Under the pieces are notes generated by a model, which was given only the letters and a program-made list of their open reading frames with translations, was not told where the DNA came from and did not search any database. A stretch of DNA of 64,000 bases from Neofusicoccum parvum (Eukaryota; Ascomycota; Dothideomycetes; Botryosphaeriales; Botryosphaeriaceae), in contig CP087220.1 in NCBI GenBank assembly GCA_020912385.1, forward strand, positions 1,054,001-1,118,000. The letters are read 5' to 3'. This document shows, one piece after another, positions 20,278-40,410 of this stretch (position 1 is the first letter of the stretch; every line of letters begins with the position of its first letter). Both the position numbers and the translations under genes were made by a program.

Positions 20278-20976
20278 TCAATCAAGGGTCACACACCGAG
20301 CGAACAGCATATCCACCCTCGTGTTGACATGTTTGAAGTCGGTATACTTCGGCGCCGAAATCATATCAACACAGTGCTGCGTGTGCGCGAGCGGGATAGC
20401 CTCATCGGTCACGATATGGCCGCTCATGCCGGCCATGTGCAGCAGCTTGAAGATATACAGGCAGTGCACGACGTGGTAGCCCTGCTCGGTGTAGACGCGG
20501 CGGGTGGTGGTCAGGTCCTCCGGGGCGATTTCCTGGGTGGCGTTGAGGTCGTAGTACCACTTCCAGGGGCCGTACTTCTCGAGCCACATCTGCGACTCGT
20601 CGGGCTTGTAGCAGCGCGGGTGGATCCAGCCGAAGCTCATGAGGTCCCACACGCAGCCCAGCGCCTGCGCCTCCTCCGGCGTGTTGCCGCAGTGCTCGAC
20701 CACGTGCGACCCGCCCTGGTACGTCGGCCACAGCGGCACCGTGCTGCCCGGGTGCCGCCGCTGCGCGAGCACCAGGATGAAGGCCAGCAGCCCGAGCGTC
20801 AGCGACGTCGACGCGACGATGAGCGCGGAGCAGAGCCGCGAGCGTTGCGGGCTGCGGCTGAGGCCGGGCGATGTGTAGTTCGCCTTCTCGTTCGAGGCGT
20901 TGGTTGGTATGAATGGCTGGTCTTCGCCGCTTGCGCTGAGCGGTAGGTTCTGGTATTCGGATTCGGATGACGACAT
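20278..20976 (-). CDS. Divergent UstYa-type protein with two HxxHC motifs
   Basis: A single exon of 232 aa from the first ATG (20976). A cytosolic Ser-rich N-terminus is followed by one membrane helix (about 49-70, SALIVASTSLTLGLLAFILVL), then a lumenal domain. It carries CGNTPEEAQALGCVWDLMSF, a block shared with the gene at 26842 and not with classic DUF3328 proteins. It keeps the UstYa hallmark twice: His168-x-x-His171-Cys172 and His198-x-x-His201-Cys202. UstYa proteins oxidatively modify or cyclise ribosomal peptides in the secretory pathway of ustiloxin-type clusters. A role in maturing the peptide at 30.3 kb is inferred from motif and position. It marks the left edge of the cluster and is transcribed away from the acetyltransferase gene. 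Confidence 0.8.
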   Translation of the reverse strand: MSSSESEYQNLPLSASGEDQPFIPTNASNEKANYTSPGLSRSPQRSRLCSALIVASTSLTLGLLAFILVLAQRRHPGSTVPLWPTYQGGSHVVEHCGNTPEEAQALGCVWDLMSFGWIHPRCYKPDESQMWLEKYGPWKWYYDLNATQEIAPEDLTTTRRVYTEQGYHVVHCLYIFKLLHMAGMSGHIVTDEAIPLAHTQHCVDMISAPKYTDFKHVNTRVDMLFARCVTLD

Positions 20977-21478
20977 ATCTTGGAGCAATTAGCTTGTCGC
21001 GTCTCATTGAGGGGGGTCAAAAAGTTTCCAGCACGTACAAGAAGACATTTTGCTCATAAACTTGGGTGCCATGTCGCCGGATTCCCCAAATAGAAGTGGG
21101 GCAACTTTATTGTACAGAAAAAAGAGTGTTTATCAAGGTTTCGAATTGTTGACCTGTTGGAGGGATGTTTGGGATTGGAGAGACTTGCTGTTGATCCGCT
21201 GAAGTCTAATTAAAGAGTGCTCCAGCAAAGGGCTTCTTCATGAAAGGGGGGGCTCTTGGTGGTCGCTCCATGGTTGACCGTGAACTTTCCGGAAGTCGTG
21301 CAAAAGTCCGGAGCCGGAAAGCAGCAACGCACGGAGTGCCCGCCTGTCTGACGCGAGTCAGTGGACGACTGTCGCCGGACGGTTGTCCATCCAATAGTCG
21401 GCCCGTCCCTCGCGCCCAATCCGCCCGCAGAAGCCGGCGCTGCACGGCCGGGGCCTAGAGTCGTCGACTACTGTCAAA
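20977..21478. promoter_or_regulatory. Divergent promoter of UstY-type gene and GNAT gene
   Basis: A 502-bp region between two divergent starts. It contains TTCCGGAA near 21287-21294, further CCGGA elements, and an AflR-type TCG-N5-CGG site listed separately. Several CGG/CCG half-sites suit Zn2Cys6 regulators. The activity is inferred, not shown. Confidence 0.45.
21372..21382 (+). promoter_or_regulatory. Candidate AflR-type site TCG-N5-CGG
   Basis: The sequence TCGCCGGACGG fits the AflR consensus TCG-N5-CGR. It lies about 100 bases upstream of the acetyltransferase start and about 400 bases from the divergent UstY-type start. An AflR-like regulator gene is 1 kb away. One such match is expected by chance in a few kb of GC-rich DNA, so this is only a candidate. 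Confidence 0.35.
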
Positions 21479-22356
21479 ATGGGCGAAGTTCGCATGCGCG
21501 ATTCGCAGAACTTGAGGCGCTCGCCTAATAACGCACGCAACATGGTCCGCTCGTATCCCTCCGCCTTTTTGGTCCCCTCGGTGGTTCACTAATCCTGTGT
21601 TGTAGACCTACACGATTCACCCGGTCAAGCCTACAGATGCTGAGGGCCTTGCCGAGACTATGATGCGCGCCTTTTACCAAGATCCGCATTGGGCGTCCCT
21701 CTGGAGGAACGTATCTTTGGATGACATCATCCAAGATTGTGCGAAGCGGTTGCCGTGGAACCTTGTGAAAGCCACCGCCGCGAAGCGGCACCGGAAGGTT
21801 ACGGAAGACACCACTGGGAACGTTGTGGGCTATGCGAGATGGATACTTCCAGAAGAAAACAGCGAAGCATGGGCCGATGCTTTGGTGATCGAAACGGACC
21901 CCGAAAGACGCCGGGTATACGAACAGCGGTTCCAGAGTGTAACTGAAGAGGGCAAAATACGTGGCCTTGATGCTGAAATGGTGGAAGAGCTTAGTGAAGC
22001 AATCGAAAAAACAGAAGCTCAGGTGCGAAACACCAGTGAAAGGTTTCTCAGTCAGTAGTCCGGCATTACCATCAGCATTTACTTGGACTGACTGTTTCGC
22101 AGCCTTGGACTACTTGGCCACGCATCCGGAACACCAGAAACGTGGCATAGGCTCCATGCTGATCTCGAACGGTTTGGCATACGCAGACAACAATGGGCTC
22201 AAGACCATTGTCGTTGCCAAAACACCAGGCGTCAAACTGTACCAGGAGCATGGGTTCCGTATCGTCGAAAGAATTCAGCAGGAGCGTCCACAGTACGGAT
22301 GGTCTGAGCCGTATACAACTACAATTCTCATCCGAGAGCCTAACCCCCCAAAGTAA
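21479..22356 (+). CDS. GNAT-family N-acetyltransferase
   Basis: Exons 21479-21544, 21606-22050 and 22103-22356 give 254 aa. The body starts TYTIHPVKPTDAEG, a normal GNAT opening, and the acetyl-CoA-binding motif is THPEHQKRGIGSML (Q-x-x-G-x-G type). The C-terminal VKLYQEHGFRIVE is the usual final GNAT strand and helix. The first donor (GTCCGC) is weak, although the intron has a good CACTAAT branch site; the true start could differ. The second intron could also begin at 22036 in the same phase. The enzyme could acetylate an amine such as a lysine side chain of the cluster peptide, or protect the producer, but that is inference from location only. Confidence 0.72.
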
Positions 22357-22420
22357 GAGAGACACAAAACCAGATGCTCAATTTCAGAACTTTTAAATTT
22401 TTTATATTTCTTTTAGTATC

Positions 22421-23818
22421 TCAAGGCTCTGGCAGTGAGCTCCAGGACTTTGCAAGCCCCAGCAAGAACTCGGATTGCATGTTCGACATGCCCGAGTCCC
22501 CAGCTCCCAGATCTTGGAGCATTCCCAAGCCAGCAAAAAGCATGGTAGCGCGCCTTTTGACTCGCCTGACATCCTCCTTTAATTTACGCGTGGCCACCGT
22601 ATTGTCCATTGCCTCGCCAAGCTGAGAGCTCATGTTACTCACCAGCTCGTAGGCGTTCCCCAGGATAAAGCAACATCTTGTGATGATCATGTTTGGTAGG
22701 CAAGTAGTGCACAAGACCAGTCTCTCCGCCGTCAAAAATGTGGACTGGATGGCTTCGAGAAGCTCCATATATCGGGCACCAGATGGCACTGTCGATATCC
22801 TGTCCAGGCAAACCAGGGCAGCTTGGGAACAGTTGCAGTGACGTGGATCTTCTTCTCGAGATGAAGGACTGTTCTGTAGTATCGATGATGTTTGCCCTAT
22901 ATCTGATCCCTTGGTGCAGCTAACGGAGCGCCCGCTAGTGCTGGTAGAGTGTCAGATCTTAACACAGTGCAACAACTTGTTGAAGCGGCTTACATTTCGA
23001 CAGTTTCCACCGGAGAGGCTGATAGAGATGCTGTTATGTCTATGCCCATACTCCCAAAACTAAAGTCTTGGTGATGGCTTTGGGTCTGTGGAGACTGCGA
23101 GTACGAGTGTTCGCCGTCTTTGTGCCCAGAATCATTGACTTGTTCAAAATCCCGTGACTATATAAAGGCGGTCAGATCCAGGCTTTCATTTCAGCCAGCA
23201 TGGGAACAAAACATACCGATGGGGTGTTGAAAATTTCTCGATCCCTCTGTTGGATGTCTCCGTTTGGAGTTCCAATTCGAGAGATCGAACTTGTGCTCGC
23301 TCTCTCATTCGAAGATAAAGTGTCTGGGCTTCCATCGACTGTTATGAAGTAGCCGTCGGTCTTGAATTGGCTGAAATCATCCATCGAGAATGGTAAGATG
23401 GTCGTATGGTCTGGGGAAAACTGCGGAGAAGCCTCCATCTCGGATGGAAGCAGCCCCCAATGTTGGTGTTCTTCTGACAGGTTTACGGTACGGTCTACTT
23501 GAATGAGTTTGACATATCAAAAAGAACCAGAGGACGATGCTTACTTGGATAATGTTCGCCCTCCTCTTGAGAGGCACTGCGTGCCCTCTTCGGAGCTCTT
23601 CCATTTCTAGAGGGTGCTCCCGTCTTGGCCAGTGAAGACTGCCGGCAGGACTTTTTTGGTCGGCCCATCCACTTTCCCAGGCTGTATGTGCATACACTAC
23701 TGGTCATCCGACAGCGTGTGCAGCCATTCTCCTCCATTGTGCATTTCACCTTGCACCTGTAGCATTGGTCGCACGCTTTCGAATTGACTTTGCTTGGGGC
23801 GGGTCCGTAGGGCTGCAT
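22421..23818 (-). CDS. AflR-type Zn2Cys6 transcription factor
   Basis: Exons (in transcript order) 23818-23545, 23494-23217, 23157-22994 and 22940-22421 give 411 aa, close to the usual length of AflR. The zinc cluster has Cys16, 19, 26, 33, 36 and 43, with an extra Cys22, and is followed by YSLGKWMGRPKKS, matching the basic linker that follows the AflR zinc cluster. The middle is Ser/Asp-rich. The C-terminal part, from EEDPRHCNCSQAALVCLDRI to the end, matches the aflatoxin-regulatory-protein domain. Such proteins switch on secondary-metabolite clusters by binding TCG-N5-CGR sites. The start is the ATG 15 codons before the first Cys; an open frame extends further up but lacks sense. It is probably the pathway-specific activator of the surrounding genes. 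Confidence 0.85.
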
Positions 23819-24508
23819 TGCGTTGATAGAGACAAGATTTAGCCAGAAAGAATTGACGGCGTTATGATTCCGTCCATTCAAAGTGCAGCTCGCTGAGGCG
23901 TTTATACTTTCGCGCATGAAGCTAAAGAAAGGGCCCCAGCCATATCTTATCACGCCATACCTGTACTTGCCAGCGGTAGCCGCAGACGAGTCGAGAATGG
24001 GGTTCGTGCTTGTTGTGCGCCTGGTGGCAAAAGATATGCCATGGATGGTGCTGCTCGTGCGGGGATGGAGCTTTCCCCGCTCCTGAATATCTCGCTTCTT
24101 CTGGTATGGTTTAGGCACAACCGCTACTCAGGTCGATATCACTGTCGATCTCCAGTTTGATGTCAGCTGCACTGTAGCCAGCCAATGCTCGCTTAAGTTA
24201 GGCAAGCATACCAAGCTTTTTAGGGTTGGATGCCTTACTGCACCGGGGCTCTGTAGGGCCAGCTCGGATCTTGTACCCATACCCAGGCCGGTGAAGAACT
24301 CCGAATATACGAACGCCACCGATTTAGTGCTGCGGGGACGAATCATGAGGCGCACAAGCCAGAGAAAGAGCATCGGGGACAAGCCTGAACAACCGGCGGT
24401 TGATGCTCTCCGATACTATCATCGCCGAGCTCTACTCCACGGAATGAAGTGATATTTGATCCAGCGTACGCTCATTTCAGATTCGTATCCGTGTCTCAAG
24501 CGCTGACA
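23819..24508. promoter_or_regulatory. Divergent promoter of AflR-like regulator and canonical UstYa gene
   Basis: A 690-bp stretch between divergent starts. No convincing gene lies within it. Several CGG/CCG half-sites are present, including CCG-N6-CGA at 24301-24312, one base longer than the AflR spacing. No perfect TCG-N5-CGR match was found by eye. Confidence 0.4.
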
Positions 24509-25455
24509 ATGGCTTCTCTCCCTCATCCAAACCTGTTCGACAACGAGGCTCTGCTGGCGGATAACGCCATAAGCGCCGGGTCTCACCGGAAGGCGATGGG
24601 GACCAGGTACGAATGCCACCAATGCCACAGTTGCCTTCGGTCTCTCTCTGACTGCATGACGCAGGAAATTGCCCGAGCAAGCAGGCCCGTCCCTTTGGCC
24701 ACTACACCTACTGCATGCCGCGGTTTGCCTTGCGACGCTGGCAGCAACGTTTGCCGGGGCGTGGCAAATGGGACATCAGCGAGGAGCGCTGCAGTTCGCG
24801 TCCGTCGAGAGCTCGGCTGGGGACTGGGAAGTTGTGTCGCGATGGTGGATGCCGGACAGGGATTTCGATCCTGCAAACGGACAGCACACAGAGCTGAGCG
24901 ATGCCGCGTGGGACACCATGCACTCCCGTACGAGCGGCCGAGGAAGTTTGCGAGCCATGCTAACCGGACTGTAGGCTACGTTGGCATCCCGGACGCGGTC
25001 CAGCACGGCTACCCGCCGTCCGCACCTGCGCCCGAGCACGGCAACGTCAGCGCGTACGCCGTCTCGGCTTTCCACCAATTGCACTGCCTGTGAGTAATGC
25101 TAGCTCCCCCGGCGGCTGACCGCTTGGCTGACCAGGGTGCCAACGCAGACGGACCATCCGCAGCGCGTGGTTCGCTGTCCTCGAGCGCGGGCCCTCTGTG
25201 CTGGAAGACCCCACGGGAGTGCCTGGCCACCCGTCGACAAAGAAGCTTCTCGGGCCGCATATCACCCATTGCTTTGACTTCATCCGGCAGGCGTTGATGT
25301 GCTTTGCAGATCCCACGCTGGAGCCGTTCCTGATGGAGGACGGCGTCACGCTGCAGCCCCGCGGGTCCAGTGGCTGGGGCGTGACGCATCAGTGTCGGGA
25401 CTTCAATGCATTGGTGGACTGGTCGCAGGAACGGGCTATCTTCCAGGGCTTGTAG
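24509..25455 (+). CDS. Canonical UstYa (DUF3328) family oxidase-type protein
   Basis: Exons 24509-24606, 24665-24927, 24975-25089 and 25149-25455 give 260 aa. One membrane helix near residues 45-65 (LWPLHLLHAAVCLATLAATF) anchors a lumenal domain. Both hallmark motifs are intact: HQLHC at 154-158 and HITHC at 196-200, the latter inside the family pattern HITHCFDFIRQALMCFADPT. The C-terminus carries WGVTHQCRDFNALVDW, also typical. The third exon follows a 47-bp intron (GTACGA donor, TGCTAACC branch, CTGTAG acceptor); overlooking it would make the gene look frameshifted. UstYa proteins carry out oxidative tailoring or cyclisation of kexin-processed peptides. It stands in tandem with two further UstY-type genes on the same strand. 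Confidence 0.88.
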
Positions 25456-25702
25456 GCAGCGTTTGGTAGAATACGAGCAGCTTGACGTCCGGAGAGTGCG
25501 AGGAGAGCAGTGTGTCCGGCCGCAGATCGCCAGGCTCCGGTGCGTGTCGTTCGCCCGGCGCCTCGCCCCTGCCCAGATCCCGGGCCTGCGGAGCGTCCCG
25601 AATCGTAATTCCCCGGACCTCACCTCGTCGAGTAGATAAGAAAACGCCGCGCGAAGACGCGTTCTAGCTCCAATCTCATGTGCACCGGCAAGCAGCACGA
25701 CA

Positions 25703-26513
25703 ATGACCATAGGCCCGACCACACCGCCGTTTCAAAAGGCACAGGCCTCGAGAGAGTACCGCCAGGTGCCCCTCCTCGACGTGGAGGACGCCCAGACCAC
25801 GCGATCCCAAGGGACCCGACGCGCTGGAAAGTCTATTTTCTTCAGCACGTCCATCGCGCTGCTCTACGTGTGCATCGGCCTGATCGTCGGGTACCTGTGC
25901 CGCAACCCAGACCCGACGCTCTCGGCCTACGGCATCAACCCCGCCATTCCCGTCCCGGAATCTGTCTTCACCGAGCGGAGCGAAGTCACATTCCAGCCGG
26001 ATTACGACTACATCGGAGTCAGCACGGCTGCAGACGAGCACTGGCGCAGACTGCTCGGAGGTGCGTTTTCACCGGTCTGCTGCGCCCAATCGGGACAAAG
26101 ATAGAGACATTAAACTGACTCACGTTGCAATGGTAGCCTCTGATTCGGTCTACGTGGAAAACCCCGCTCAATACGGCCTGCCAAACTCCCAAACTCCAGA
26201 CCAACGGAATGGGAATAAGCTGTTTGTCCTGACCCCGCTGCGCCAGCTTCGGTGTCTGGACACTATCCGAAAACAGCTTGGAAGGGACGGCAAGAACAAT
26301 AGCACCGTGACGGACTATTGCGTGGAGTACCTCAGATTGACGGTCATGTGCGGCGAGTACTGGGCAGTGGAGCCGCACGTGCCTGAAAGCGACGGCAGGG
26401 AGCTGTACACGGCGGAGTTTGGTTGGGGCCTGACACACAGCTGTGTCGACTGGAAGGAATTGGATGGCTGGAGAGAAAGCCAGCTTGGACTGGCCAAGCA
26501 TGACGTAGAGTAG
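25703..26513 (+). CDS. UstYa-family (DUF3328) protein lacking all motif histidines
   Basis: Exons 25703-26060 and 26137-26513 give 244 aa. The overall plan is DUF3328: a cytosolic tail, one membrane helix (FFSTSIALLYVCIGLIVGYL, about 48-67), then the family blocks DYDYIGVSTAADEHWRRLLG and WGLTHSCVDWKELDGW. Both HxxHC motifs are replaced: RQLRC at 155-159 and VTDYC at 177-181. The cysteines and the surrounding helix (YCVEYLRLTVMC) are kept, and the frame is open with no stop or frameshift. This suggests a maintained non-catalytic or altered partner rather than decay. In ustiloxin biosynthesis two UstY proteins act together, so a helper role beside the 24509 gene is plausible but inferred. Confidence 0.83.
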
Positions 26514-26663
26514 ACCCTGATCAATGCACGACAATCTGCAATCCCTGAGCCCGTAAACCAAAGTCTAAACTTTGTCAGCCGGCACTTTCGAGCCTTGGGA
26601 GCTGTTTCGTCCAAGTACCGAAAAGTGTATCGGCCACTATTCCGTAATTTGCGGATCTGCCGG

Positions 26664-26678
26664 GATCGAGTCTCGATC
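26664..26678. promoter_or_regulatory. Palindromic AflR-type site
   Basis: GATCGAG-T-CTCGATC is a perfect inverted repeat of two 7-base arms with one central base. It contains TCGAGTCTCGA, an exact match to TCG-N5-CGA readable on both strands. It lies about 165 bases before the start of the UstY-type gene at 26842. This is the best candidate operator in the cluster for the AflR-like protein. Confidence 0.5.
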
Positions 26679-26841
26679 TTGCCCCTCCGCCTCCGAGTTT
26701 CCATCCGGAATCTGGAAAGTCCGGCCATCGCCACCAGGTCTCGTATACCTTCGGTTTCCACATGGCCATCGTTCATAATGGACGGGCGTTCGCGCCTCGA
26801 GCGCTAGCGCCGTGCACCAAAAATCCCACTCGTTTCAAGCA

Positions 26842-27570
26842 ATGCCACGCGCGTCATCTTTACCGAAATACTCCCAACTCAGCCTCGACGAGGACGAAGG
26901 CAAGCTCGAGCGGCCAAGACTTCCTCGGCCCGCCAAAACGATCAAATATGCTTTGGGGGTCACAGCGCTCGGCCTTCTTGCCTTCGCCGCCGTTCTTCTT
27001 CTGTTACTTTCACTCTGCATCCTCACGGCTCTGATACTACCTCGGATCCTCCCCAACCTGAGCCTCTCCTGCGACGCACCATCCCATGGAGACGCACAAG
27101 CCCTCCAAGCACCGACCGGCTACAAAGCCGGCACCGCACAGCCCTGCGGAAACTCGCCCGCGGAGGCCGAGGCAGCCGGCTGCGTGTTCGACCTCATGAC
27201 GGTGTCCTGGCTGCCGCTGGAGTGCTACGACGGCGAGCTGACCGCGCAGTTCATGGAGGAGGGGCCGTGGACCTTCTACCTGAGCAACTCGACCCGCCCG
27301 GAGGCGCTGCCGGAAGAGCGCGAGCAGATCCCGTCGCTGGAGGCGATCAGCAGGACGACCGAGCTGATGTGGACGGACCGCCGCTTCCACATCTACCACT
27401 GCATCTATGGTTGGAAGATGATGCACCGCGCCATCGAGAGGGGCTGGAAAATGGAGAGCTCGTTGGCGACGTATCACCATACTGAGCATTGCTCGGATAC
27501 TTTGGCGAACACGACGGTGCCCATGGAGGCGGTGATCACGAGAGTTGATCTTTCTTACCCTGCATGTTGA
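26842..27570 (+). CDS. Second divergent UstYa-type protein with two HxxHC motifs
   Basis: Intronless, 242 aa. The first ATG in the frame was chosen; a GTG lies 10 codons further up. It has one strong membrane helix (about 36-66, with AAVLLLLLSLCILTALILP). The lumenal part carries CGNSPAEAEAAGCVFDLMTV, clearly the same block as in the 20278-20976 protein. Motifs are His183-x-x-His186-Cys187 (HIYHC) and His213-x-x-His216-Cys217 (HTEHC). The two proteins form a UstY subgroup distinct from classic DUF3328. It is the last of three co-oriented UstY-type genes. The reaction catalysed is unknown; peptide oxidation is inferred from motif and context. Confidence 0.8.
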   Translation: MPRASSLPKYSQLSLDEDEGKLERPRLPRPAKTIKYALGVTALGLLAFAAVLLLLLSLCILTALILPRILPNLSLSCDAPSHGDAQALQAPTGYKAGTAQPCGNSPAEAEAAGCVFDLMTVSWLPLECYDGELTAQFMEEGPWTFYLSNSTRPEALPEEREQIPSLEAISRTTELMWTDRRFHIYHCIYGWKMMHRAIERGWKMESSLATYHHTEHCSDTLANTTVPMEAVITRVDLSYPAC

Positions 27571-27999
27571 TTAAATCTGTATTTAGTATCTGAAAAGTTC
27601 GTTTCTAGAAAATATGGCACAGTGTTGTACGGTGAATGTAACGAACCAGAACCTACGCACACCGTAGTTACCCAGAGTAATCTTGGTCAAAGTATAATTT
27701 TTTTCGGGCGCAGGGAATTACAGCCAACGTGGAGTATGAAGAGAGTTTTTCAGACGCAATGAGATAAGCTTCCTCCCCGTGATACGTCCAATTGGACAGT
27801 CAATGAGTTAATCTCGTCACCTCTTTGGATTTGTCACCGCTCACATACTTGAACACTGAGCTGATTCGAGGAAATCATACGCCGGTACACCATTGAAATT
27901 CAGTTTTTCCTGTACGGTGTCGGTTTATAGTTTTAATATTCTAGCGTTTAAACAAATTTTTACATGGGCACAGTCCAGTCCCCTGATCTGTCAAGCAAG
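27571..27999. other. AT-rich intergenic region between convergent genes
   Basis: No gene seen. The stretch lies between the converging ends of the UstY-type gene and the MFS transporter gene. It is AT-rich and contains likely 3' untranslated sequence of both. Confidence 0.5.
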
Positions 28000-29656
28000 T
28001 CATCTCAAATCCCTCCCCATCCACGCCGCCACCGCCGCCATAACACCCGCAAGCTTAAAAGCAAAAGCCGCCGGATCGTCCCTCCCCGTCATCTCAACAA
28101 GTTTAAACAGCACACTGCACCCCAACGCGGCGCAAACCTGTGGCAACGAGATGGCCATATTATGGACGCCCATGATGCCCGCCGTGCTCTCATCCACCCA
28201 ATCCACCGCGCCACCCACCTCCTCCTTCTCAGCCGAGCCGTCCCAGCCCTCCCTCCGGGCCTTCAGGCTCGCGATCTCGGTGCTGATCAGGGCGTAGGGC
28301 GCCCACGACGCGACGGCCCAGGCGACGCCGAGCGCGCCGACGACGACGGTGGCGGCCGGCACGGTGTACACGAAGCTGGTCAGCAGCATCAGCGCCGCGA
28401 ACAGGCAGTGCGCGAGCTGCCACACGCGGCCGAGCGACAGCGTGCACAGCGTCACGGCCGGCACGTCGCCGCCGCCGGACGCCTGCTGGCGCACCGAGAG
28501 CCGGGCCACGAGCGGCAGGACCAGCGACGAGGCGAAGGTGACGCAGGCGAAGACCAGCGAGGCGCGCGTGCCCGCGCGCTTGCCCATCTCGATAAGGCGC
28601 GGGTCGGCGCTGCCGAAGATGTCGGGGTCGAGGTGGACGTGCTGGTCGATGACGACTGGGGAGCGTGTCAGCGAGCTGGAGGACGGCAGGGAAGCGGGGG
28701 AAGGCGGGAGCAAAACTTACACACTTGGTAGACGTAGGTGGTGGAGTAGTACAGCACGGCGAACCAGCCGGTCCACGCGCAGAACTGCACCTTGCACACC
28801 TGCCGCGTGACGGGCGGGAGGTCGCCGCACCGCCTCCACACGCCCGCCAGCAGGCTGACCACGCCGCGCCGCGCGCCGACGTCCCTGCTGGGTGCGTCGG
28901 GCACGAAGGCGCAGGCGGGCGCGACGGCCACGGCCAGCGCGAGCACGGCCAGCACGCACAGCGCCTTGAACTTGGTCTCGCCCAGGGCGGGCGCCCAGGC
29001 CTCGACGTCGGCGAAGGCGGAGGCGGAGATGGCGACGGCGCCCAGGCCGTTGAAGCGCGCGCTCCACGCCGCGGCCGCGCTCTGCTGGCGCGCCGGGCAG
29101 CTGTCGACGATCAGCGCGCGCACGCCGCTCTGCAGCGGCTGCATGGCCGCGTTGAGCGCGCACGCCCAGAACGCGACCAGCAGCTTGGTCAGCGTCGTGG
29201 CCTTGGGCGGCCCCGACGCGTACATGTGGCCGTGCGACGCCGCGGTGCCCGACAGCCAGTTGGACACGTCCTCGGCGCAGGCCAGGCCCAGCAGCGACAG
29301 CGAGACCATGCTGGCGCCGCCGGCGATGTACGGCTTGCGCTTGCCCCACGGGTGCCGCGTGCGGTCGGAGAGCGTGGCGAAGAGCGGCTGGATCAGCGCG
29401 CCGCTGAGCGGCCCCGAGAGCCAGACCAGCGCGGTGATGGACGTGGGCATGCCGAGCCCAGTCATGTAGGGCGTGCCGTAGGACATCATGATCAGCCAGA
29501 GCACCTGGATGCTGCAGTCGACCGTTAGCGTGGGCTGCTGTGTGCAAGTGTCGTGGCGGATCTCGCTCACCCGAGGTTTGGCAATGTCAGCGCAAGCATC
29601 CGCCATCTGCTGATTGAAGGCGTGCGGTCCTCATAGCTCTCGAGCGTGAGGTCTGA

Positions 29657-29687
<31 letters not shown>

Positions 29688-29770
29688 CTGCTGCTGCTTG
29701 CACGGCCTGCTTCCACCTCCAGGTCTGCGATGTCTTGGGACATTGACGGTCGAGGAAAGCTTCCCTGCAT
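28000..29770 (-). CDS. MFS transporter of the sucrose/alpha-glucoside (GPH-like) type
   Basis: Exons (transcript order) 29770-29571, 29511-28721 and 28655-28000 give 548 aa. The N-terminal tail contains a Ser/Asn run from a CTG/TTG repeat. Helix 1 reads LTLPNLGIQVLWLIMMSYG, like sucrose symporters. The cytosolic loop between helices 2 and 3 has SDRTRHPWGKRKPYI, matching the family motif D-x-x-x-x-x-x-G-[RK]-R-[RK]-P. About twelve helices are predicted. In sugar carriers of this family the substrate is an alpha-glucoside taken up with protons. Here the gene shares a 0.5-kb promoter with the peptide precursor and may export the product; that is inference. The first ATG (29770) was used since no ATG occurs higher in frame. 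Confidence 0.8.
29657..29698. repeat. CTG/TTG trinucleotide repeat encoding Ser/Asn run
   Basis: About 14 imperfect CTG and TTG triplets lie in exon 1 of the MFS gene. Read on the minus strand they are AGC/AAC-type codons giving alternating Ser and Asn. Length may vary between strains. It lies in a cytosolic tail and is not expected to affect transport. Confidence 0.7.
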
Positions 29771-30259
29771 TTTCTTGGAGGTCTGCGGGGTTTCTGCTGG
29801 TGATGGTGGAATTTCCACCAATATGACTTTTAACCCGCTGCTTGACAGTTGTCAGGCCCAAGACGCGTTCGTGGGGCCGGAAATGGTGGTCGGAGCGACA
29901 CGACGGTCGCTGGTGTTTTCGGCGCCGAATGAATTGCCAATTCCGGAAGCCGCCCAACTTTCGGCACCTGGCGCACTGACATCTCCGCGTTCTGACCACA
30001 TCCTCCTCCGGACCACCACTGCACGCCGCCAGGCGCAATCCTCCGACATACGCGCTGCCGATGATGCTGCCACACCATAGGCACATCGAACAAACCTCTG
30101 TATTGCCGTCGGCAGCATGGCCGTTAGGAGGGTATATTATGCCACCTCCACCGCACCAACTGAACTCAGCACCAACAACAGGTCGATTGAATCTTCTACA
30201 TCACACTCAGCAGCCTCAACCAGCCCCCGCTCCAAATACCAACAACAACAACCACAACG
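29771..30259. promoter_or_regulatory. Divergent promoter of MFS transporter and RiPP precursor
   Basis: A 489-bp region between the two starts. It holds a perfect 12-bp palindrome (29918-29929), TTCCGGAA near 29941, TGCCG-T-CGGCA near 30104-30114, and a TATA-like element at 30133-30139 about 125 bases before the precursor ATG. The last 80 bases are rich in CAA/CCA, as in many strong fungal leaders. Shared control of precursor and transporter is inferred. Confidence 0.5.
29918..29929. promoter_or_regulatory. Perfect palindrome TTCGGCGCCGAA
   Basis: A 12-base perfect palindrome holding CGG and CCG triplets in inverted orientation, the half-site type bound by Zn2Cys6 dimers. It also reads TCG-N4-CGA, one base shorter than the AflR consensus. 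It is about midway in the shared promoter of transporter and precursor. Confidence 0.45.
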
Positions 30260-31347
30260 ATGAAGTTCTCCAACGTCGTCACCGTGGCCCTCATGGCCAC
30301 CTCGGCGGCTTCCTTGCCTCTCAGCCCTGGTAAGCCATGACTCCCGCACAGCCCTCTTGGAGCCACTTGTCCCGTTCTAACACGCTGAAAACAGCCGGAC
30401 ACAACCTCGTTCCGTATGACGGCATCGAGAGCCTGATGAAGCGCAACGCTGAGGCGGATCCTCAGAAGCTCAAGGTCGACAAGCGGGAGCCCCAGAAGCT
30501 CAAGGTCGACAAGCGCGACCCTCAGAAACTCAAGGTCGACAAACGCGAAGCCGAGCCGGAAGCCGAAGCCGAGGCCGACCCCCAGAAGCTCAAGGTCGAC
30601 AAGCGTGAGCCCCAGAAGCTGAAGGTCGACAAGCGTGAGCCCCAGAAGCTCAAGGTCGACAAGCGTGAGCCCCAGAAGCTCAAGGTCGACAAGCGCGAAC
30701 CCCAGAAGCTCAAGGTCGACAAGCGCGACCCGGAACCTCAGAAGTTGAAGGTCGACAAGCGCGAGGCGGAGCCCCAGAAGCTCAAGGTTGACAAGCGCAA
30801 GGCGGAGCCGCAGAAGCTCAAGGTCGACAAGAGGGAGCCCCAGAAGCTCAAGGTCGATAAGAGGGAGGCGGAGCCCCAGAAGCTTAAGGTCGACAAGAGG
30901 GAGCCTCAGAAGCTCAAGGTTGACAAGCGCGACCCGGAACCCCAGAAGCTTAAGGTCGACAAGCGCGAGCCCGTTGCTGAGCCTCAGAAGCTGAAGGTCG
31001 ACAAGCGCGAGCCTGTTGCCGAGCCCCAGAAGCTCAAGGTTGACAAGCGCGAGCCCGTTGCCGAGCCCCAGAAGCTGAAGGTTGACAAGAGGGAGGCGGA
31101 GCCCCAGAAGCTTAAGGTGGACAGGAGGGAGGCTGAGCCGCAGAAGCTCAAGGTCGACAAGCGTGAGCCCGTTGCTGAGCCCCAGAAGCTCAAGGTCGAC
31201 AAGCGCGAGCCCGTTGCCGAACCCCAGAAGCTCAAGGTTGACAAGAGGGAGGCTGAGCCGCAGAAGCTTAAGGTTGACAGGCGCGAGCCCCAGAAGCTTA
31301 AGGTTGACAAGAGGGAGGCTGAGCCCCAGAAGCTCAAGGTCGATTGA
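30260..31347 (+). CDS. Kexin-processed repeat precursor of a predicted RiPP (25 PQKLKVD units)
   Basis: Exons 30260-30329 and 30395-31347 give 340 aa. A signal peptide (MKFSNVVTVALMATSAAS) is followed by a short leader ending MKR at residue 40. From residue 46 to the end come 25 copies of PQKLKVD, identical in all 25. Units are separated by KR, or RR after units 19 and 23. Spacers are EP, DP, EAEP, KAEP, DPEP, EPVAEP, a 6-residue NAEADP before unit 1 and a 12-residue Glu/Ala/Pro form before unit 4; all are strings of Xaa-Ala or Xaa-Pro. Such precursors enter the secretory pathway, are cut by kexin at KR and trimmed by carboxypeptidase and dipeptidyl aminopeptidase. The predicted product is QKLKVD. 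No aromatic, Cys, Ser or Thr residue is in the core. Position among four UstY-type genes supports a RiPP; a pheromone-like secreted peptide is the alternative. Confidence 0.9.
30460..31344 (+). repeat. Coding tandem repeat, 25 units
   Basis: Unit lengths are 30, 36 or 42 bp, with one of 60 bp. Codon use differs between units at Leu (CTC, CTG, CTT, TTG), Val (GTC, GTT, GTG), Asp (GAC, GAT) and Arg (CGC, CGT, CGG, AGG), while the encoded heptapeptide never changes. A higher-order pattern is visible: the series EPVA, EPVA, EA with RR occurs at units 17-19 and again at 21-23, which points to a recent segmental duplication inside the array. Confidence 0.9.
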
Positions 31348-31595
31348 ATACCCTTTTCCGGATCAGGTACTGGACAGGAGACTTTGACAAATTGACAGCT
31401 CGTATTGGGTACGAAGACTGTGAGGAACTTTCTATGGAGGAAACAGATGACGCGACGATGGGATACAAGGGCTTACAGCCTGTGGTCTACTGTATATGAT
31501 TTCAGCTAGAAACGCCGAGTCGTAGAATAAGGAGGTCTAAAATACCGATATTTTGGTGCCCTTCTGTGAAAACCTTCTGTTGACCTAAATCTCAT

Positions 31596-33860
31596 CTATA
31601 ATTTCCAATGCTTGCTCAGCTGCTCGTGAGCCCTGAGATGCGGCCAGGTGATATGAGCCTCAGACCGCTTCAAAATGCAGAGCAGCTGTTCTTGCTCTTC
31701 TCGCCCGGAGAAGCGGTCACCACCTAACACAAACATTCAGCCCAAAACAAGCAGCAGGTAGAAGGGAGCCACCTACACATAGCAATCACCATCCCCGTCA
31801 CCGACAACGCCGGGTGGCTCTCCGGATGGCTCACCGCAACCCCACACATCCTCCTCACATACCCTCTGATCCGCTCATCCACGTACTGCGCCGCATTGGC
31901 CCTGTCCAACCCCAGCGCCGGCACCCTCGGATCATGCGCGAGCAGCAAGATCCGACACACGTCCGAATACAGCTGCGCGCCGACTGCCCCCCTCGCACAT
32001 CAGCCAAAAACCGCCCTCTCCTCGCAAGACACGGCGGGGACTCACTGTGACAGTCGTTGGCGAAGCAGATGCGCGGAAACGGCTTGCGGGGCTCGTGCCG
32101 CACCGGCGCGAACGACGGCGGCTTGCCGCGCTGCCACGCGTCCAGGCGCGCGCGCAGCGCCTGCCACCCCTCGACGCTCTTGCCGGCCTGCCCGTGGCAG
32201 AACGTCAGCGCGTCGGCCGCCAGCGCGATCGCGCGCACCGCCCAGGCGTAGTCGGAGTCGTCTGGCGAGGCGGAGGAGGACGAGGAGCGCGAGATGGGGA
32301 GGTAGTCGGCGAGCGGCTGCACGGCGGTGCGCGTGAAGAAGGAGATGAAGATCTCTTGGCGGAGCGCGACGAGCAGGGAGGCGGCCCGGAGCGAGGAGGT
32401 GGGGGAGGGCGTTTCTTGCGCGCGCAGGAGGATGTGCGTGCCGAGGATGTGGCCGCGGGAGCGGCGGTCGCCGACCGGGTCTGCGTGGAGAGGGGTGTGT
32501 GAGCGGTTGGGGAGGTGGGGGGGTTGGGAGGGGATGGAGGGGCGCACCCGTCATCTCGTCGAAGAGGCGCAGGATTGCGGTTGCGGCGAAGAGGGTGGGG
32601 TCGAGGAGGGAGTCTTGGTCGTTCAGAGCGGGGATGAGGATCTGGAGACATTTGCGCTGGTACTTGTCGGATGCGAGTGGGCAGTATTTGGAAGTCAGGC
32701 TTAGGTGTTTGGCCGACACGGCGAGGATGGCGTTGAGTAGAGGCTCGCAGGTTGATGAGAGTTGCACAACTGTTGTGCCGAAGTGGCGGTCTTTGTCGCA
32801 GAAGTCGAACTGACGCAGGTTTTGACGCTATGAGTTATCTGATGCTTGAAAATCATTGGTAGGGTGTGTTTCTGGGTCAACATACCCACGGTGACAGCTC
32901 TGTGATGAAATACTGCAAGAGCATGGCTTCATCCCTGTTCAAAGGCCAGAGCCCAGACGAGTCGATAGGCGAGATGGGGTCGAGACAGTCGGCATCGTCG
33001 ATGGGAAGCTCAGCAGTCACACTTCGGTCGTGGTCATAGGACGGAACCGCCGGCCACTCACATACGTCGAGGTATTCACCTGGAAGAGACCCAACTGCAC
33101 TGATTTCAGGAAGTTCGTCAAGAGTATGGCTACTGGGGGCCTGAAGCTCGGAGATTGTGCCACCTCCTTGGGGAGTTTCGACTGGGAACCAGCCGGGTGA
33201 CAAATGAGCACTAGTGCTATCAAGTGCACTGTGGACCTCTTCTGGTGGCGAATGATGATGGCTGGAATGGCTATGCGATGATGTTTGTCGTGGTGGTTCC
33301 GAATACTCTTCTTCCGACCTGCTGTGTTCAGGCGATACGGCTCCTCGGTTCTCTTCATGCCCGTCTGAATCCTCAGCGTCTTGACTTGACGGCGCAGTAG
33401 GGTCGTCTTCCACGAATCTGACTGCTCAGACGGTCAGCGTCCTGTCGTTCATTTTCGCGTGGCCTGCCCGTTAGAGGGTCGAGGGTAGACTATTACGTAT
33501 TTGGGGCATCGGCACCCATAACTGATCATTGTACTTCAGCCATTTGCGCCGCTTGCGCCGCCTCTCCTCGTTTGATGTATGCGCTGTTGGGTTGTGATCG
33601 TGACGAAACGGACAGCGAGCGACGGTGGCGGTACAGTTCCATCCATTTTCTCCGCAAGAGGTGCAAGTAGGTCTTCTTCCATCGCCTGAAAACTTAGCTC
33701 TACCCCCTCTATGCCACCATGACCCTACTGCACCACTCACATTTGATATGCCGGCGACTACATTCGTAACTGCAGAAATCAGCAATGGATCTTCGTCCGT
33801 GCGAGTCCAGCAGACCCACCAAGCTTTTCTGTGGCCGAGTCGTTTCAGCGAGGGCTTCAT
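31596..33860 (-). CDS. Zn2Cys6 transcription factor with fungal-specific TF domain 2 (PF11951 type)
   Basis: Eight exons (transcript order) 33860-33820, 33769-33741, 33685-33497, 33421-32886, 32809-32548, 32480-32046, 31983-31777 and 31723-31596 give 608 aa. The zinc cluster spans three small exons: Cys14, 17, 24, 31, 34 and 41 (C-x2-C-x6-C-x6-C-x2-C-x6-C), with RRHIKCDGRRPTC in the middle. A Ser/Glu-rich linker follows. The regulatory domain shows LLQYFITELSPWFDFCDKDR, then LLNAILAVSAKHLSL and GHILGTHILL, and ends with ITWPHLRAHEQLSKHW. Read without the tiny second exon the finger looks broken; with it the finger is perfect. It could control the cluster or the neighbouring dioxygenase gene, from which it diverges. 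Membership in the pathway is uncertain. Confidence 0.82.
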
Positions 33861-34470
33861 AATCCGATCAGAGGCTCCGGACCGGTTCAGACAGAAGGCG
33901 AAAGGGTCAGGTTTAGAAGCAAAATGGTGGGGTAAATGTCTCCGGCTGAGTCAGCGGAGACTGTCTCCGTTTGCGCACAGCCTACCCCACCTCCGGGTGG
34001 CCCATGTCCGATGGGGGCAAGCCTTGGGACCGCGCCCCGGAAAACATTGCTCGATCGTGCCTTTCGCCAAGCGGAAGCCAACTCCATCTCCACAACTTCC
34101 CGGAAAGGCTAGCCCTTGATCGAGGAGGCGAAACATGCGTGACAATTCACCGCATCTCATGGGTCAACGCTACGAAGCGACGTATGACGTGCACTTGTAG
34201 TCACGAGCACTTTACCCACCCCTTGAGGAGTCAAGGGCAACCAAAGAAGAATATCTCTCCGTTCTCTGAAAAGGCACAACAAGATATAAAGATGGGATCC
34301 GGAGGACTGGGATCGACTAACTTGAGACCAGCCAGCTACCCTCGATTTCCGTCCACTGAGACCAAGCTATCGTCTGTGCAAGACTACAAGTCAATACAAG
34401 GTAGTTTCCATCCCTCGAGAGAAGCAGAAACACTTGGTCTAATCTACTGTGCACACAGGAGCTAGTAAAC
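33861..34470. promoter_or_regulatory. Divergent promoter of Zn2Cys6 factor and PhyH gene
   Basis: A 610-bp stretch between two divergent starts. It contains a large imperfect palindrome at 33939-33960 and further CCGG/CGGA elements near 34035-34105. No coding region is supported. Confidence 0.45.
33939..33960. promoter_or_regulatory. Imperfect palindrome with TCTCCG/CGGAGA arms
   Basis: Arms TCTCCG-(G)-CTGA and TCAGCGGAGA are exact inverted repeats of ten bases apart from one inserted G, around a single central base. CGGAGA-type half-sites suit a Zn2Cys6 dimer. A further TCTCCG follows at 33964-33969. It lies about 80 bases upstream of the Zn2Cys6 gene start, so autoregulation is possible. 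Confidence 0.4.
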
Positions 34471-35667
34471 ATGTCTCAAACACAAACCATTCAAACCCAA
34501 ACTATTCCTCAATCCCCCACTCCCAGCTGGCCGGGCGTTGAGCTCAAAGTCAATGATGGGACTCTTCAATCCTCAGATATCCTTCCTCTCCGCCCATCCC
34601 ACCCAACCGAACCGATCGAAGTCCTCCGAGAACGCTACGACCGCGACGGCTACCTTTTCCTGAAGGGCTTGCTCCCCCGCGAGGATATACTCAAGTGCAG
34701 AGAGGAATACTTCAAGCTACTTTCCCCTACCGGCGTTCTCGCACCCGGCACTTCGCCCGTCGACGGCATCTTCGATGCCTCTAAGAACAAGAACTTATAT
34801 CCTGGCGTTGGAGCGGCGACGAACCCGGGCAAGACCATGGATCCCACTGCCGCAAAGTTTGTCGACTTGGCGGTCAAGGCGCACACCGAGCCCTGGTACG
34901 CCGATGGCCTCTGCCAGCACCCGGTCCTCCTGAACTTCATCAAGGAGATCAGCGGGTGGGGAGAGAACATGCTTCCGCTTCGTAGGACCTTGTTGCGGAA
35001 CAACACGCCCGGAAACAACGCGATCGGTGTCCATTATGATCAGATCTTCTTACGCCACGGTGATCCGACCGCGTTTACCGCATGGGTTCCCATTGGTGAT
35101 GTGGGTCTTGAGGGTGGTGGACTCATATACATGGAAGACGGTATGCTGCCTTCTCCATATGTTACTGGATTGCGAGGAGTAATTTTATGCAGGGGACAAG
35201 GTTGGCCAGGACATCGAGAATGCGTTCTCCGCAAAGGCAGCCCAGACCGGATTGACAGATGAGGAGGCCAAGAACGGGTTTAACCAGAACATGATGCGCA
35301 CGGGCTGGCTCGCTGATGGACCACTTGAATTCGGTCACGAGCACAAGAAGAGGTGGTTTGTCTCAGCATATGAAGCTGGAGATATTACGCTTCACAAACC
35401 CCATATGGTATGTATAAATCAATGCCTTAAATTGCATCCTGCTGACACGCCTGTAGATACACGCCTCAACCATCAACACCGACCCGTTGAACAAGATTAG
35501 GCTTGCGACAGACCTTCGATACGTGAACTCTGCTCGGCCACACGATAAGGTGCGTCACTAAAATTTTCTTTTTCTCAATATTCCTTTTCGATATGCTTCA
35601 GATTTTTGACCAGAACTGCAGAGGTGGATGGACCATTACCGGCCTGACGATGGTTTGTAATCTTTGA
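34471..35667 (+). CDS. Phytanoyl-CoA dioxygenase (PhyH) family Fe(II)/2-oxoglutarate enzyme
   Basis: Exons 34471-35140, 35193-35407, 35457-35549 and 35602-35667 give 347 aa, a normal length for the fungal family. LRERYDRDGYLFLKGLLPRE is the usual PhyH opening. The iron ligands are read as His188 and Asp190 (GVHYD) and a distal His297 (PHMIHAS), with a downstream Arg (RLATDLRY) for 2-oxoglutarate. The enzyme should hydroxylate or otherwise oxidise an aliphatic C-H bond. Inferred role: side-chain hydroxylation of the cluster peptide, whose Lys, Leu, Val and Asp are aliphatic targets. It may instead belong to an unrelated small unit with the divergent Zn2Cys6 gene. It marks the right edge of the cluster. 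Confidence 0.83.
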
Positions 35668-39013: not shown

Positions 39014-40410
39014 TCAAACCGCCTCCACCACTTCCTCACGAATGGTCAAGTGACCGCTTCCCGCACTCTTATCCGTGCTTTTCTGCGGCAACAACGAGTC
39101 CTCACCATTATTCGTCAGAGTCGTTGCCGTTTCCAACCTGCTCCCTTTCAGAAACTTCAGATTCCTCATGCGATAAGAAAAGCTATGAGCATCGTTGCTT
39201 TGCGGCGGCGATAGCTGTGCCTTAACTCGAGTGAACAAGATATTGACGGCCGGCAAACAAGCGCAGATGAGGCCGATGCTGACCTCAGCAGTCCTGCGCC
39301 CGACCGTCAGCAATCATGACCTTTTGAGAAAGCCCAGGTGTAGTTCTAAAGGACCTGTAGAATACAGCCGATGGAAGTGGGCAGTAGACATACCCAAGAA
39401 GATTGAAGCGGACAAAATCAACAGTCGAGTCCGTTGAGTTTTGCAGCTTGATGACGAGATACATGCGCACGAAACTCGCGCCTGTCGCGATACCGCCCAC
39501 GCCAAGCATGGCCCACACCTTCAACTTCTTTGCCATCGGCATCCGGAGAGACAGCGATGCCGGTATGGGGAGGACGAGAACAGCCAGGTCGGTGACGGCG
39601 CTGAGGACTGTGTCGGCCACGAAGATGGCGCGCTGGTCGAGACAGGTGGACTTGATGTCCGAGTCCCAAAAGGCGTGGATGGGTTTGCAGATTTGGATCT
39701 TGATGATCATGACAGGGAGATAGTATCCGACCATGGCTCCTATGAGGACATATGTGACTATTTTCGTGGTCTTGAAGACGTTGAAGACCCGGGCTATGAC
39801 GAGGAGGAGCGCTACTTTTGTGAAGTATGCGTTTGGGCCGTAGACGACCGTATCTGCGTAGAGTGCCTATGGTGGTTAGTGCATGCAATTTTGGTGGGTA
39901 AGATTCTGATTCGAGTCGTAACTTGCTTTGTTAAATCCTTTACTTTGCTCGGTTGACAATTCCCAGACGTGGTAGCCTCCGCCGAAATGGTACACTGTGT
40001 AGAAGCTGAGCTCGTTGTATCACCTCATACATGACTCTGAGAAATTTTTACTCACTCATTAATGCCGTAGTACTGTATCCCATGGCTAGAACCTGTCCAT
40101 GTAATTAGCACCGTGTTCACATATCACGATACGCACACAACGTACCCAAGCTAAGACACATGCCCCTATTGAGCAAATTTCAGTAATTTATTGACTGATG
40201 TAGTGAGAATCATCATTACCTACAGTCCTCAATCACAAATGGCGGCAACACAAAAACCTTGGCGTAAATACGGACGAACACGAATGGTGTGACAACGGCT
40301 ATGGCCAGTATTTGAGACACAAGATTGATGGTGTTGAGGACATCTTCGGGATGTTCGAAGTTTGGCGTGGCCCCGGGAGGCGGAGGCGCTGCGGGTTGTT
40401 TGCTCGTCAT
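39014..40410 (-). CDS. Rhodopsin-domain (PTH11-like) seven-helix membrane protein
   Basis: Exons (transcript order) 40410-40224, 40165-40146, 40092-40056, 39994-39927, 39866-39394 and 39293-39014 give 354 aa. Helix 1 is VSQILAIAVVTPFVFVRIYA. Further helices include FTKVALLLVIARVFNVF and LAVLVLPIPASLSLRM. The Cys-containing loop IQICKPIHAFWDSDI and the final helix EVSIGLICACLPAV are typical of the fungal rhodopsin-domain family related to PTH11. These proteins are probably surface sensors, though most have no assigned ligand. The fourth intron begins GCAAGT and ends TAG, a rare GC-AG intron; no GT donor in the right phase is available nearby. The second exon is only 20 bp. Confidence 0.78.

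What the first reader, a model, noticed from the sequence alone, without database searches (positions are those of the whole stretch)
20278..35667. Undescribed dikaritin-like RiPP gene cluster with an aromatic-free core
Seen: a secreted precursor with 25 identical kexin-flanked units lies among four UstYa-type genes, an AflR-like regulator, an MFS transporter, a GNAT enzyme, a second Zn2Cys6 factor and a PhyH dioxygenase. Known: ustiloxin, asperipin and phomopsin clusters combine kexin-cut repeat precursors with UstYa proteins, and victorin of a Dothideomycete also comes from repeat precursors with many UstYa homologues. Inferred: this is a complete pathway for a new peptide. The core has no Tyr, Phe or Trp, so its chemistry must differ from the Tyr-ether rings of dikaritins.
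Basis: partly seen in the sequence, partly recalled or inferred. Interest (0 to 1): 0.95.

Follow-up and report, generated by a model that had tools for sequence, protein, structure and literature searches.

The report
Fungal UstYa peptide cluster making QKLKVD
A fungus carries a gene cluster that should cut 25 copies of a six-residue peptide out of one secreted protein and modify them; the peptide was listed before, but its enzyme cluster, its pheromone-like spacers and a sister cluster in the same genome are informative new details.

Summary
Window 30260-31347 encodes a secreted-looking precursor with 25 identical QKLKVD cores at kexin sites, among UstYa-type genes. The core is not new: Le Marquer 2019 lists QKLKVD as a conserved kexin-processed repeat motif in Pezizomycotina, without a cluster in the passages I read. 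(1) All 24 spacers are pure XA/XP dipeptides, the STE13 trimming signature of alpha-pheromones, which that paper says ustiloxin-type and epichloecyclin precursors lack; the expected product is QKLKVD or its pyroglutamyl form. (2) A sister cluster lies on another contig: eight QVRFVF cores, 7 of 7 XA/XP spacers, the nearest relative of UstYa gene D, two A/F-type genes, a Zn2Cys6 frame like gene C and an MFS. tblastn finds no GNAT, PhyH or second-regulator relative there, so those three are unproven members. (3) Two of the 'four UstYa genes' (A, F) form a divergent branch below Pfam's cut-off; all six genomic copies found sit at four loci that also hold UstYa genes and repeat precursors. Gene E lost the histidines of both HxxHC motifs. 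Verdict: a real UstYa-linked RiPP cluster, a new variant of a known kind; product and role unshown.

The parts
20278..20976 (-). Gene A: divergent UstYa-like membrane protein (232 aa), HVVHC and HTQHC motifs
   Evidence: Single open frame; Pfam UstYa 15.2 bits, below cut-off 25; 32% identical to F over 153 aa
21542..22356 (+). Gene B: GNAT acetyltransferase; start codon and first intron uncertain; intron 22036-22102
   Evidence: Pfam Acetyltransf_7 40.6 bits; model; no tblastn relative in the sister cluster stretch
22421..23818 (-). Gene C: AflR-like Zn2Cys6 regulator (412 aa, spliced by hand, 3 introns)
   Evidence: Pfam Zn_clus 21.4 bits, cut-off 21; 45% over 47 aa to a frame at C11:89510-89650; 'AflR-like' rests on a recalled motif
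24509..25455 (+). Gene D: UstYa with HQLHC and HITHC; exons 24509-24606, 24665-24927, 24975-25089, 25149-25455
   Evidence: Pfam UstYa 97.1 bits; model; nearest genomic relative is in the sister cluster
25703..26513 (+). Gene E: UstYa homologue, intact frame, histidines of both HxxHC motifs lost (RQLRC, VTDYC); exons 25703-26060, 26137-26513
   Evidence: Pfam UstYa 63.3 bits; alignment A2; a paralogue at C1:183.7-184.5k keeps both motifs
26842..27570 (+). Gene F: divergent UstYa-like membrane protein (242 aa), HIYHC and HTEHC motifs
   Evidence: Pfam UstYa 13.8 bits; 15 of 19 family members match UstYa at E up to 1, best 2e-5; named relatives in Dothideomycetes, 60-99% identical
28000..29770 (-). 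Gene G: MFS transporter of the GPH/SLC45 type (type recalled); first exon added by eye
   Evidence: Pfam MFS_2 24.3 bits, below cut-off 27; about 30% to frames at C11:91053-92584, E 1.4e-35
30260..31347 (+). Gene H: precursor, 25 x QKLKVD, 340 aa; exons 30260-30329 and 30395-31347
31724..33860 (-). Gene I: second Zn2Cys6 regulator, spliced by hand, 3' end approximate; membership in the cluster unproven
   Evidence: Pfam Fungal_trans_2 42.2 and Zn_clus 25.4 bits; no tblastn relative in the sister cluster stretch
34471..35667 (+). Gene J: PhyH-type dioxygenase (347 aa), membership unproven; exons 34471-35140, 35193-35407, 35457-35549, 35602-35667
   Evidence: Pfam PhyH 32.7 bits; paralogues at C3 (61-65%) and C1 (44%), not at positions of UstYa matches

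Best explanation
A UstYa-linked RiPP cluster. Shown: a secreted-looking precursor with 25 identical hexapeptide cores, dibasic sites, pure XA/XP spacers and clustered UstYa-type genes. Inferred: after signal cleavage, kexin cuts behind KR/RR, a KEX1-like carboxypeptidase removes the basic pair, and an STE13-like dipeptidyl aminopeptidase strips XA/XP dipeptides until Gln-Lys stops it, freeing QKLKVD; N-terminal Gln may close to pyroglutamate. UstYa-type membrane proteins (D, with A and F, and perhaps E as a non-catalytic partner) oxidise the peptide. D is kept between two clusters whose cores share only Gln1 and Val5, so these are the best candidate sites for a common modification. GNAT, not found in the sister cluster whose core has no lysine, would fit lysine acetylation if it belongs. 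Gene G would export the product and gene C would switch the cluster on. The role is most likely a secreted signal or a bioactive metabolite; I cannot choose between them.
For: Precursor anatomy. Spacers 24 of 24 XA/XP here and 7 of 7 in the sister, against 0 of 12, 0 of 10 and 0 of 2 in three other UstYa-linked precursors of the genome, core boundaries chosen by me. Two UstYa over the Pfam cut-off, ending 3.7 kb (E) and 4.8 kb (D) before the precursor. Sister cluster C11:82561-92584 with precursor, D-type UstYa, a second UstYa, two A/F-type genes, Zn2Cys6 frame and MFS. All six A/F copies found lie at four UstYa-plus-precursor loci. One proprotein-convertase match and two DPPIV_N loci elsewhere in the genome.
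Against: No expression or product data. Gene E lacks the motif histidines, so part of the enzyme set may be decayed. STE13-type spacers are described as absent from ustiloxin-type precursors and typical of unmodified pheromones. The sister precursor has a canonical dibasic site at only 2 of 7 junctions. The promoter motif seen here is absent from the sister cluster's two loci. GNAT would normally be cytosolic and the precursor is secretory (recalled), so the acetylation idea needs a topology not shown.
Confidence: 0.68

Rival explanations
1. The precursor makes an unmodified, alpha-pheromone-like signal peptide (QKLKVD or its pyroglutamyl form), and the UstYa-type genes beside it act on something else.
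For: Pure XA/XP spacers in register, the STE13 signature; Le Marquer argue that repeat proteins with this signature are candidates for hormones (passage); the core has no aromatic residue for the known ether chemistry.
Against: In Umemura 2020, 0 of 227 alpha-factor-type and 3 of 216 pheromone-type precursors have a UstYa gene within 15 genes. The same combination of XA/XP precursor, D-type UstYa, A/F pair, Zn2Cys6 frame and MFS recurs on another contig. The core resembles no pheromone motif named in the section I read.
Confidence: 0.15
2. A decaying or silent cluster: intact genes remain but no active product is made.
For: Gene E has lost the histidines of both HxxHC motifs; one Zn2Cys6 protein (gene I) has Phe for a cluster Cys in my hand model (frames).
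Against: 25 cores keep one peptide with only synonymous change; D and F frames are intact and F is 60-83% identical to named relatives of other genera, with invariant HxxHC residues in the second motif. No stop or frame break is seen in the models of D, F, G or H.
Confidence: 0.09
3. A host-directed or antimicrobial cyclic peptide of the victorin or ustiloxin kind, with side-chain rings through Lys, Leu, Val or Asp.
For: Relatives of F occur in Dothideomycetes known as plant-associated (lifestyles recalled); victorin of a Dothideomycete is listed with the dikaritins. Le Marquer note that many conserved repeat peptides are in pathogenic species.
Against: No aromatic residue to carry a known ring; no tyrosinase, methyltransferase, P450 or protease domain among the ten modelled proteins. 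Nothing here measures activity.
Confidence: 0.08

Closest known systems
QKLKVD repeat motif (motif 6) of kexin-processed repeat proteins, Le Marquer et al. 2019, PMC6339444 (sections 8, 10, 11 and 17 read; other passages seen)
   Same: Identical core sequence; secreted repeat precursor; listed as conserved in Pezizomycotina, at least four species being their threshold
   Different: The sections and passages I saw give no gene cluster, no UstYa link and no product for it; figures and supplements were not available
Dikaritins (ustiloxin, phomopsin, asperipin-2a)
   Same: Signal peptide, tandem cores at kexin sites, UstYa/DUF3328 genes nearby; transporter and Zn2Cys6 regulator (these two recalled for the known clusters)
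   Different: No Tyr in the core, XA/XP spacers, no tyrosinase or peptidase domain among the ten modelled proteins, divergent A/F-type proteins; product unknown
Victorin pathway of a Dothideomycete (seen in passages of two other papers only)
   Same: Multicore kexin-processed precursor, listed with the dikaritins
   Different: Victorin is said to be cyclised through a C-terminal Phe, which QKLKVD lacks; the primary paper was not held
Ascomycete alpha-pheromone precursors
   Same: Signal peptide, KR sites followed by XA/XP dipeptides, several identical copies
   Different: Core unrelated to the pheromone motifs described; UstYa genes adjacent
QVRFVF cluster in the same genome, C11:82561-92584
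   Same: Gln-first hexapeptide after XA/XP spacers, D-type UstYa, two A/F-type genes, Zn2Cys6 frame, MFS
   Different: Core Val/Arg/Phe instead of Lys/Leu/Asp; mostly single-Arg sites; no GNAT, PhyH, second regulator or close E relative found; a second UstYa with both motifs instead

Membership tests
Kexin-processed repeat protein (KEP) | Signal peptide plus several repeats separated by KR/RR | tested here: met
   25 cores, 22 KR and 2 RR junctions; signal-like N-terminus judged by eye only
KEP motif QKLKVD of Le Marquer 2019 | Core QKLKVD | tested here: met
   Exact identity, 25 of 25
Dikaritin | UstYa/DUF3328 gene near the precursor | tested here: met
   D 97.1 and E 63.3 bits, cut-off 25
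Dikaritin | UstYa with two HxxHC motifs | tested here: met
   D has HQLHC and HITHC; E has neither
Dikaritin | Tyr in the core for the ether ring | tested here: not met
   QKLKVD has no Tyr, Phe or Trp
Dikaritin | Spacer without STE13 signature (as Le Marquer describe) | tested here: not met
   24 of 24 spacers are XA/XP
Dikaritin | Cyclic, side-chain-linked product | not testable with these tools
   No product data
Alpha-pheromone precursor | KR followed by XA/XP dipeptides in register | tested here: met
   exact chance 7e-12 on 8 distinct spacers, which ignores shared descent
Alpha-pheromone precursor | Core with known pheromone motif (two Cys, or PYGxPxG) | tested here: not met
   QKLKVD against the motifs named
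Alpha-pheromone precursor | Mating-type control and sexual function | not testable with these tools
   No expression or genetics
UstYa family, for genes A and F | Pfam PF11807 over 25 bits | tested here: not met
   15.2 and 13.8 bits; profile comparison of A/F type against UstYa gives probability 62%, E 7e-5; UstYa is the family matched by most members, 15 of 19

The most novel reading that the evidence does not exclude
A distinct class of UstYa RiPPs: Gln-first hexapeptides trimmed by an STE13-type peptidase, oxidised without need of an aromatic residue by a UstYa (D) working with a pair of divergent UstYa-like proteins (A/F branch) and, here, a motif-less UstYa partner (E). It would join the pheromone route of processing to the dikaritin route of modification, with two clusters in one genome as siblings.
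Probability: 0.4. Interest if true: 0.7.

Novelty: new variant of a known kind. Interest (0 to 1): 0.5.

Why it matters
The core QKLKVD has been on record since 2019 as a conserved fungal repeat peptide; the passages I read give it no cluster. This locus offers a candidate enzyme set and, through the sister cluster, a way to tell core genes from bystanders. It also bears on a question raised in two of the papers seen: whether modified repeat peptides grew out of pheromone precursors. And it points to a divergent UstYa branch that a Pfam threshold search misses but whose six copies found in this genome all lie beside repeat precursors.

Tried and rejected
Precursor homologues: phmmer against the protein collection found none with the whole precursor (the 7998 candidates sharing most words scored) or residues 1-72 (67 candidates, E up to 10). 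Repeat proteins are often unannotated and composition correction may hide them, so this does not show absence.

Other copies of the core: none in the genome outside this gene.

Co-regulation: spaced Zn2Cys6 half-sites in six cluster promoters gave nothing beyond shuffles (17 of 200 reached the best ratio). The 8-mer CTCCGGAC is in 4 of 6 promoters, above the 95% shuffle maximum of 3, and 4 of its 6 window sites are there; but it is absent from both loci that hold the sister cluster and present in 7 of the other 18 loci scanned. Suggestive at most; it was picked after looking.

Horizontal transfer: F is 83% identical to an Ascochyta protein but 71-73% to Diplodia. The best tree already holds the Botryosphaeriales rows on one side of a branch, weakly (74/82), so transfer is not shown. 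The AU rejection of the four named Pleosporales in the same call is not used, since unnamed rows may be Pleosporales.

Pheromone gene elsewhere: one pattern hit is not a repeat precursor. Whether the genome has a separate alpha-pheromone is not settled. A 5.8S rRNA search meant to identify the species found nothing. NCBIfam gave nothing for gene A.

Papers: QKLKVD is in 1 paper; KLKVD in 3, two unrelated. In the titles and abstract starts listed by searches (40 of 2,321 shown), 35, 59 and 85 I saw no description of this cluster, nor in the passages I opened.
Full report
WHAT IS THERE. The window lies in a 44-Mb, 18-contig genome at C15:1054001-1118000. Gene F is 99% identical to a protein of Neofusicoccum ribis, so the genome is probably a Neofusicoccum or a very close relative (inference). 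Gene H (30260-31347) encodes 340 residues: a signal-peptide-like start, a pro-region ending LMKR, and 25 identical QKLKVD cores with 22 KR and 2 RR junctions. The core is kept by selection (inference): its 25 copies use 10 DNA versions and one peptide, so every core change seen is synonymous, while spacers vary.

SPACERS. Every one of the 24 spacers is a run of XA or XP dipeptides: EP, DP, EAEP, DPEP, KAEP, EPVAEP, EAEPEAEAEADP; the segment before the first core, NAEADP, is of the same kind. If the residues of the 8 distinct spacers were dealt at random, all even positions would be Ala or Pro with chance 7e-12; tandem copies share descent, so this is only a guide. This is the STE13 signature. 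Le Marquer 2019 describe it as typical of alpha-pheromones and absent from the toxic cyclic peptides and epichloecyclins (passages). The expected trimmed product is QKLKVD (inference). One proprotein-convertase match and two DPPIV_N loci exist elsewhere in the genome.

THE CORE IS KNOWN. A full-text search for QKLKVD found one paper, PMC6339444. Its section 10 (read) lists QKLKVD among new conserved repeat peptides of Pezizomycotina, with at least four species required. The sections and passages I saw link it to no cluster. Figures and supplements were not available.

UstYa-TYPE GENES. Pfam puts D and E in UstYa (97.1 and 63.3 bits; cut-off 25) and leaves A and F below it (15.2, 13.8). D has HQLHC and HITHC. 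E reads RQLRC and VTDYC, with a gap before the second motif, while a paralogue on contig C1 keeps both. A and F are homologues of each other (32% over 153 aa). A profile of six A/F-type proteins of this genome aligns to five UstYa proteins over 97 columns that include the HxxHC motifs (probability 62%, E 7e-5), and 15 of 19 family members match Pfam UstYa at E up to 1, best 2e-5. I read A and F as a divergent UstYa branch. The 14 invariant columns of the 19-row alignment include C102, G103, C114, W123, C128, H213, H216 and C217 (numbering of F; one row is a shortened model and lacks the first HxxHC).

THE A/F BRANCH MARKS REPEAT-PRECURSOR LOCI. Searches with F and with A (its one further hit, E 0.056, is not counted) both find the same six copies in the genome, at four loci. 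All four loci also have a UstYa match and a repeat precursor 1.7 to 9.3 kb away: QKLKVD here; QVRFVF at C11:82.6k; VQAWGGDLNAIDFK x3 at C10:223.1k; ADPPWYRDSAA x11 at C11:42.4k. The 23 UstYa matches (a lower bound) fall into 12 loci by my grouping: four with A/F genes, eight without. Of those eight I could read three on both sides; one has a precursor (C1, YVWASSAK x13), while C18:281-311k was not flagged by the scan and C10:620-650k was flagged only in frames that I judged by eye not to be precursors. The other five were unread or half read. So the contrast is 4 of 4 against 1 of 3. The YVW core recalls another motif of Le Marquer, YVW[G/A][G/S].

THE SISTER CLUSTER. C11:82561-92584 holds a 190-aa precursor with 8 QVRFVF cores and 7 of 7 XA/XP spacers, a second UstYa at 84.1k, an A/F-type gene at 84.9k, a UstYa that is the nearest genomic relative of D (66% over its main exon, next 41%; 69% over the 117-residue piece aligned), another A/F-type gene at 87.6k, a Zn2Cys6 frame 45% identical to C over 47 residues (E 2e-7), and an MFS about 30% identical to G (E 1e-35). 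No tblastn match at E 0.001 was found there for B, I or J, and only a weak UstYa-type match for E; tblastn can miss short exons. Only 2 of its 7 junctions are dibasic; the rest are VR or AR, so its processing is less clear. The two cores share Gln1 and Val5 only, hence my guess for the site of a common modification. The sister core has no Lys and no GNAT was found in its cluster, which would suit a lysine-acetylating role for gene B; this is an inference from one pair.

COMPARISON. Umemura 2020 (abstract and sections 6, 7 and 9 read, other passages seen) found UstYa genes within 15 genes of 22% of 7878 repeat precursors, Tyr in 65.6% of the repeats of those precursors, and UstYa genes within 15 genes of 0 of 227 alpha-factor-type and 3 of 216 pheromone-type precursors. 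A precursor without Tyr beside UstYa genes is thus common, while a pheromone-type spacer beside UstYa genes is unusual, with the caveat that those counts rest on annotated pheromones and not on spacers. A 2025 lichen paper (section 22 read) credits UstYa proteins with ether bonds, hydroxylation, chlorination and transacylation, so an aromatic-free substrate is not against their chemistry. A survey of Venturia found nine such clusters (passages), so mining one is routine.

DISTRIBUTION. The profile search with the A/F type returned 17 proteins (only the 7995 candidates sharing most words were scored): three of N. ribis (99%, and two paralogues at 30-35%), Ascochyta lentis (83%), Pyrenophora teres (76%), P. 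tritici-repentis (75%), a shortened P. seminiperda model (60%), Bipolaris sorokiniana (76%), Diplodia intermedia and D. corticola (73, 71%), Lasiodiplodia theobromae (67%), and six unnamed (72-86%). I could not see their surroundings, and the precursor itself was not found in that collection.

MECHANISM AND LIMITS. Shown: anatomy, spacers, sister cluster, co-localisation. Inferred: secretion, trimming, oxidation, export, regulation. Membership of B, I and J rests on position alone; J has paralogues at places without UstYa matches. Structure prediction for F gave a middling model without a PDB match. Against my reading: no expression or product data, loss of the motif histidines in E, mostly non-dibasic junctions in the sister, and a promoter motif that fails in the sister cluster.

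VERDICT. Real and coherent; a new variant of a known kind. The core is on record; the processing signature, the divergent pair and the sister cluster are the points worth a specialist's time.

Noticed in passing
L030 8561-9185 (C11:82561-83185): Second Gln-first repeat precursor, 8 x QVRFVF with XA/XP spacers; 5 of 7 junctions are VR or AR, not dibasic.
   Followed up: yes
L026 8388-9875 (C11:42388-43875): Repeat precursor with 11 ADPPWYRDSAA units in one open frame with a C-terminal part holding HQYHC and HTIHC motifs, as if precursor and a UstYa-like domain were fused; Pfam gives only matches below cut-off to unrelated families.
   Followed up: partly
L035 2777-3964 (C1:190777-191964): Repeat precursor with 13 YVWASSAK units near four UstYa exon matches; resembles motif YVW[G/A][G/S] of Le Marquer 2019.
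   Followed up: partly
L024 7076-7363 (C10:223076-223363): Repeat precursor with 3 VQAWGGDLNAIDFK units beside UstYa and an A/F-type gene.
   Followed up: partly
L029 6971-7486 (C11:70971-71486): Secreted-looking protein with three about 40-residue kexin-flanked repeats (QLDQALKDVTAAIPVVGGGNPIGSL...), more than 12 kb from the nearest UstYa match found.
   Followed up: no
L030 6810-8149 (C11:80810-82149): Multi-helix membrane protein, receptor-like by eye, next to the QVRFVF precursor; no Pfam family above cut-off.
   Followed up: partly
window 39285-39866 (-): Fungal rhodopsin-domain protein (Pfam PF20684, 126.6 bits) about 4 kb beyond gene J.
   Followed up: no
window 31724-33860 (-): In the hand model of gene I the third cysteine of the Zn2Cys6 cluster reads Phe (CYECSRRHIKFSGD).
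   Followed up: no
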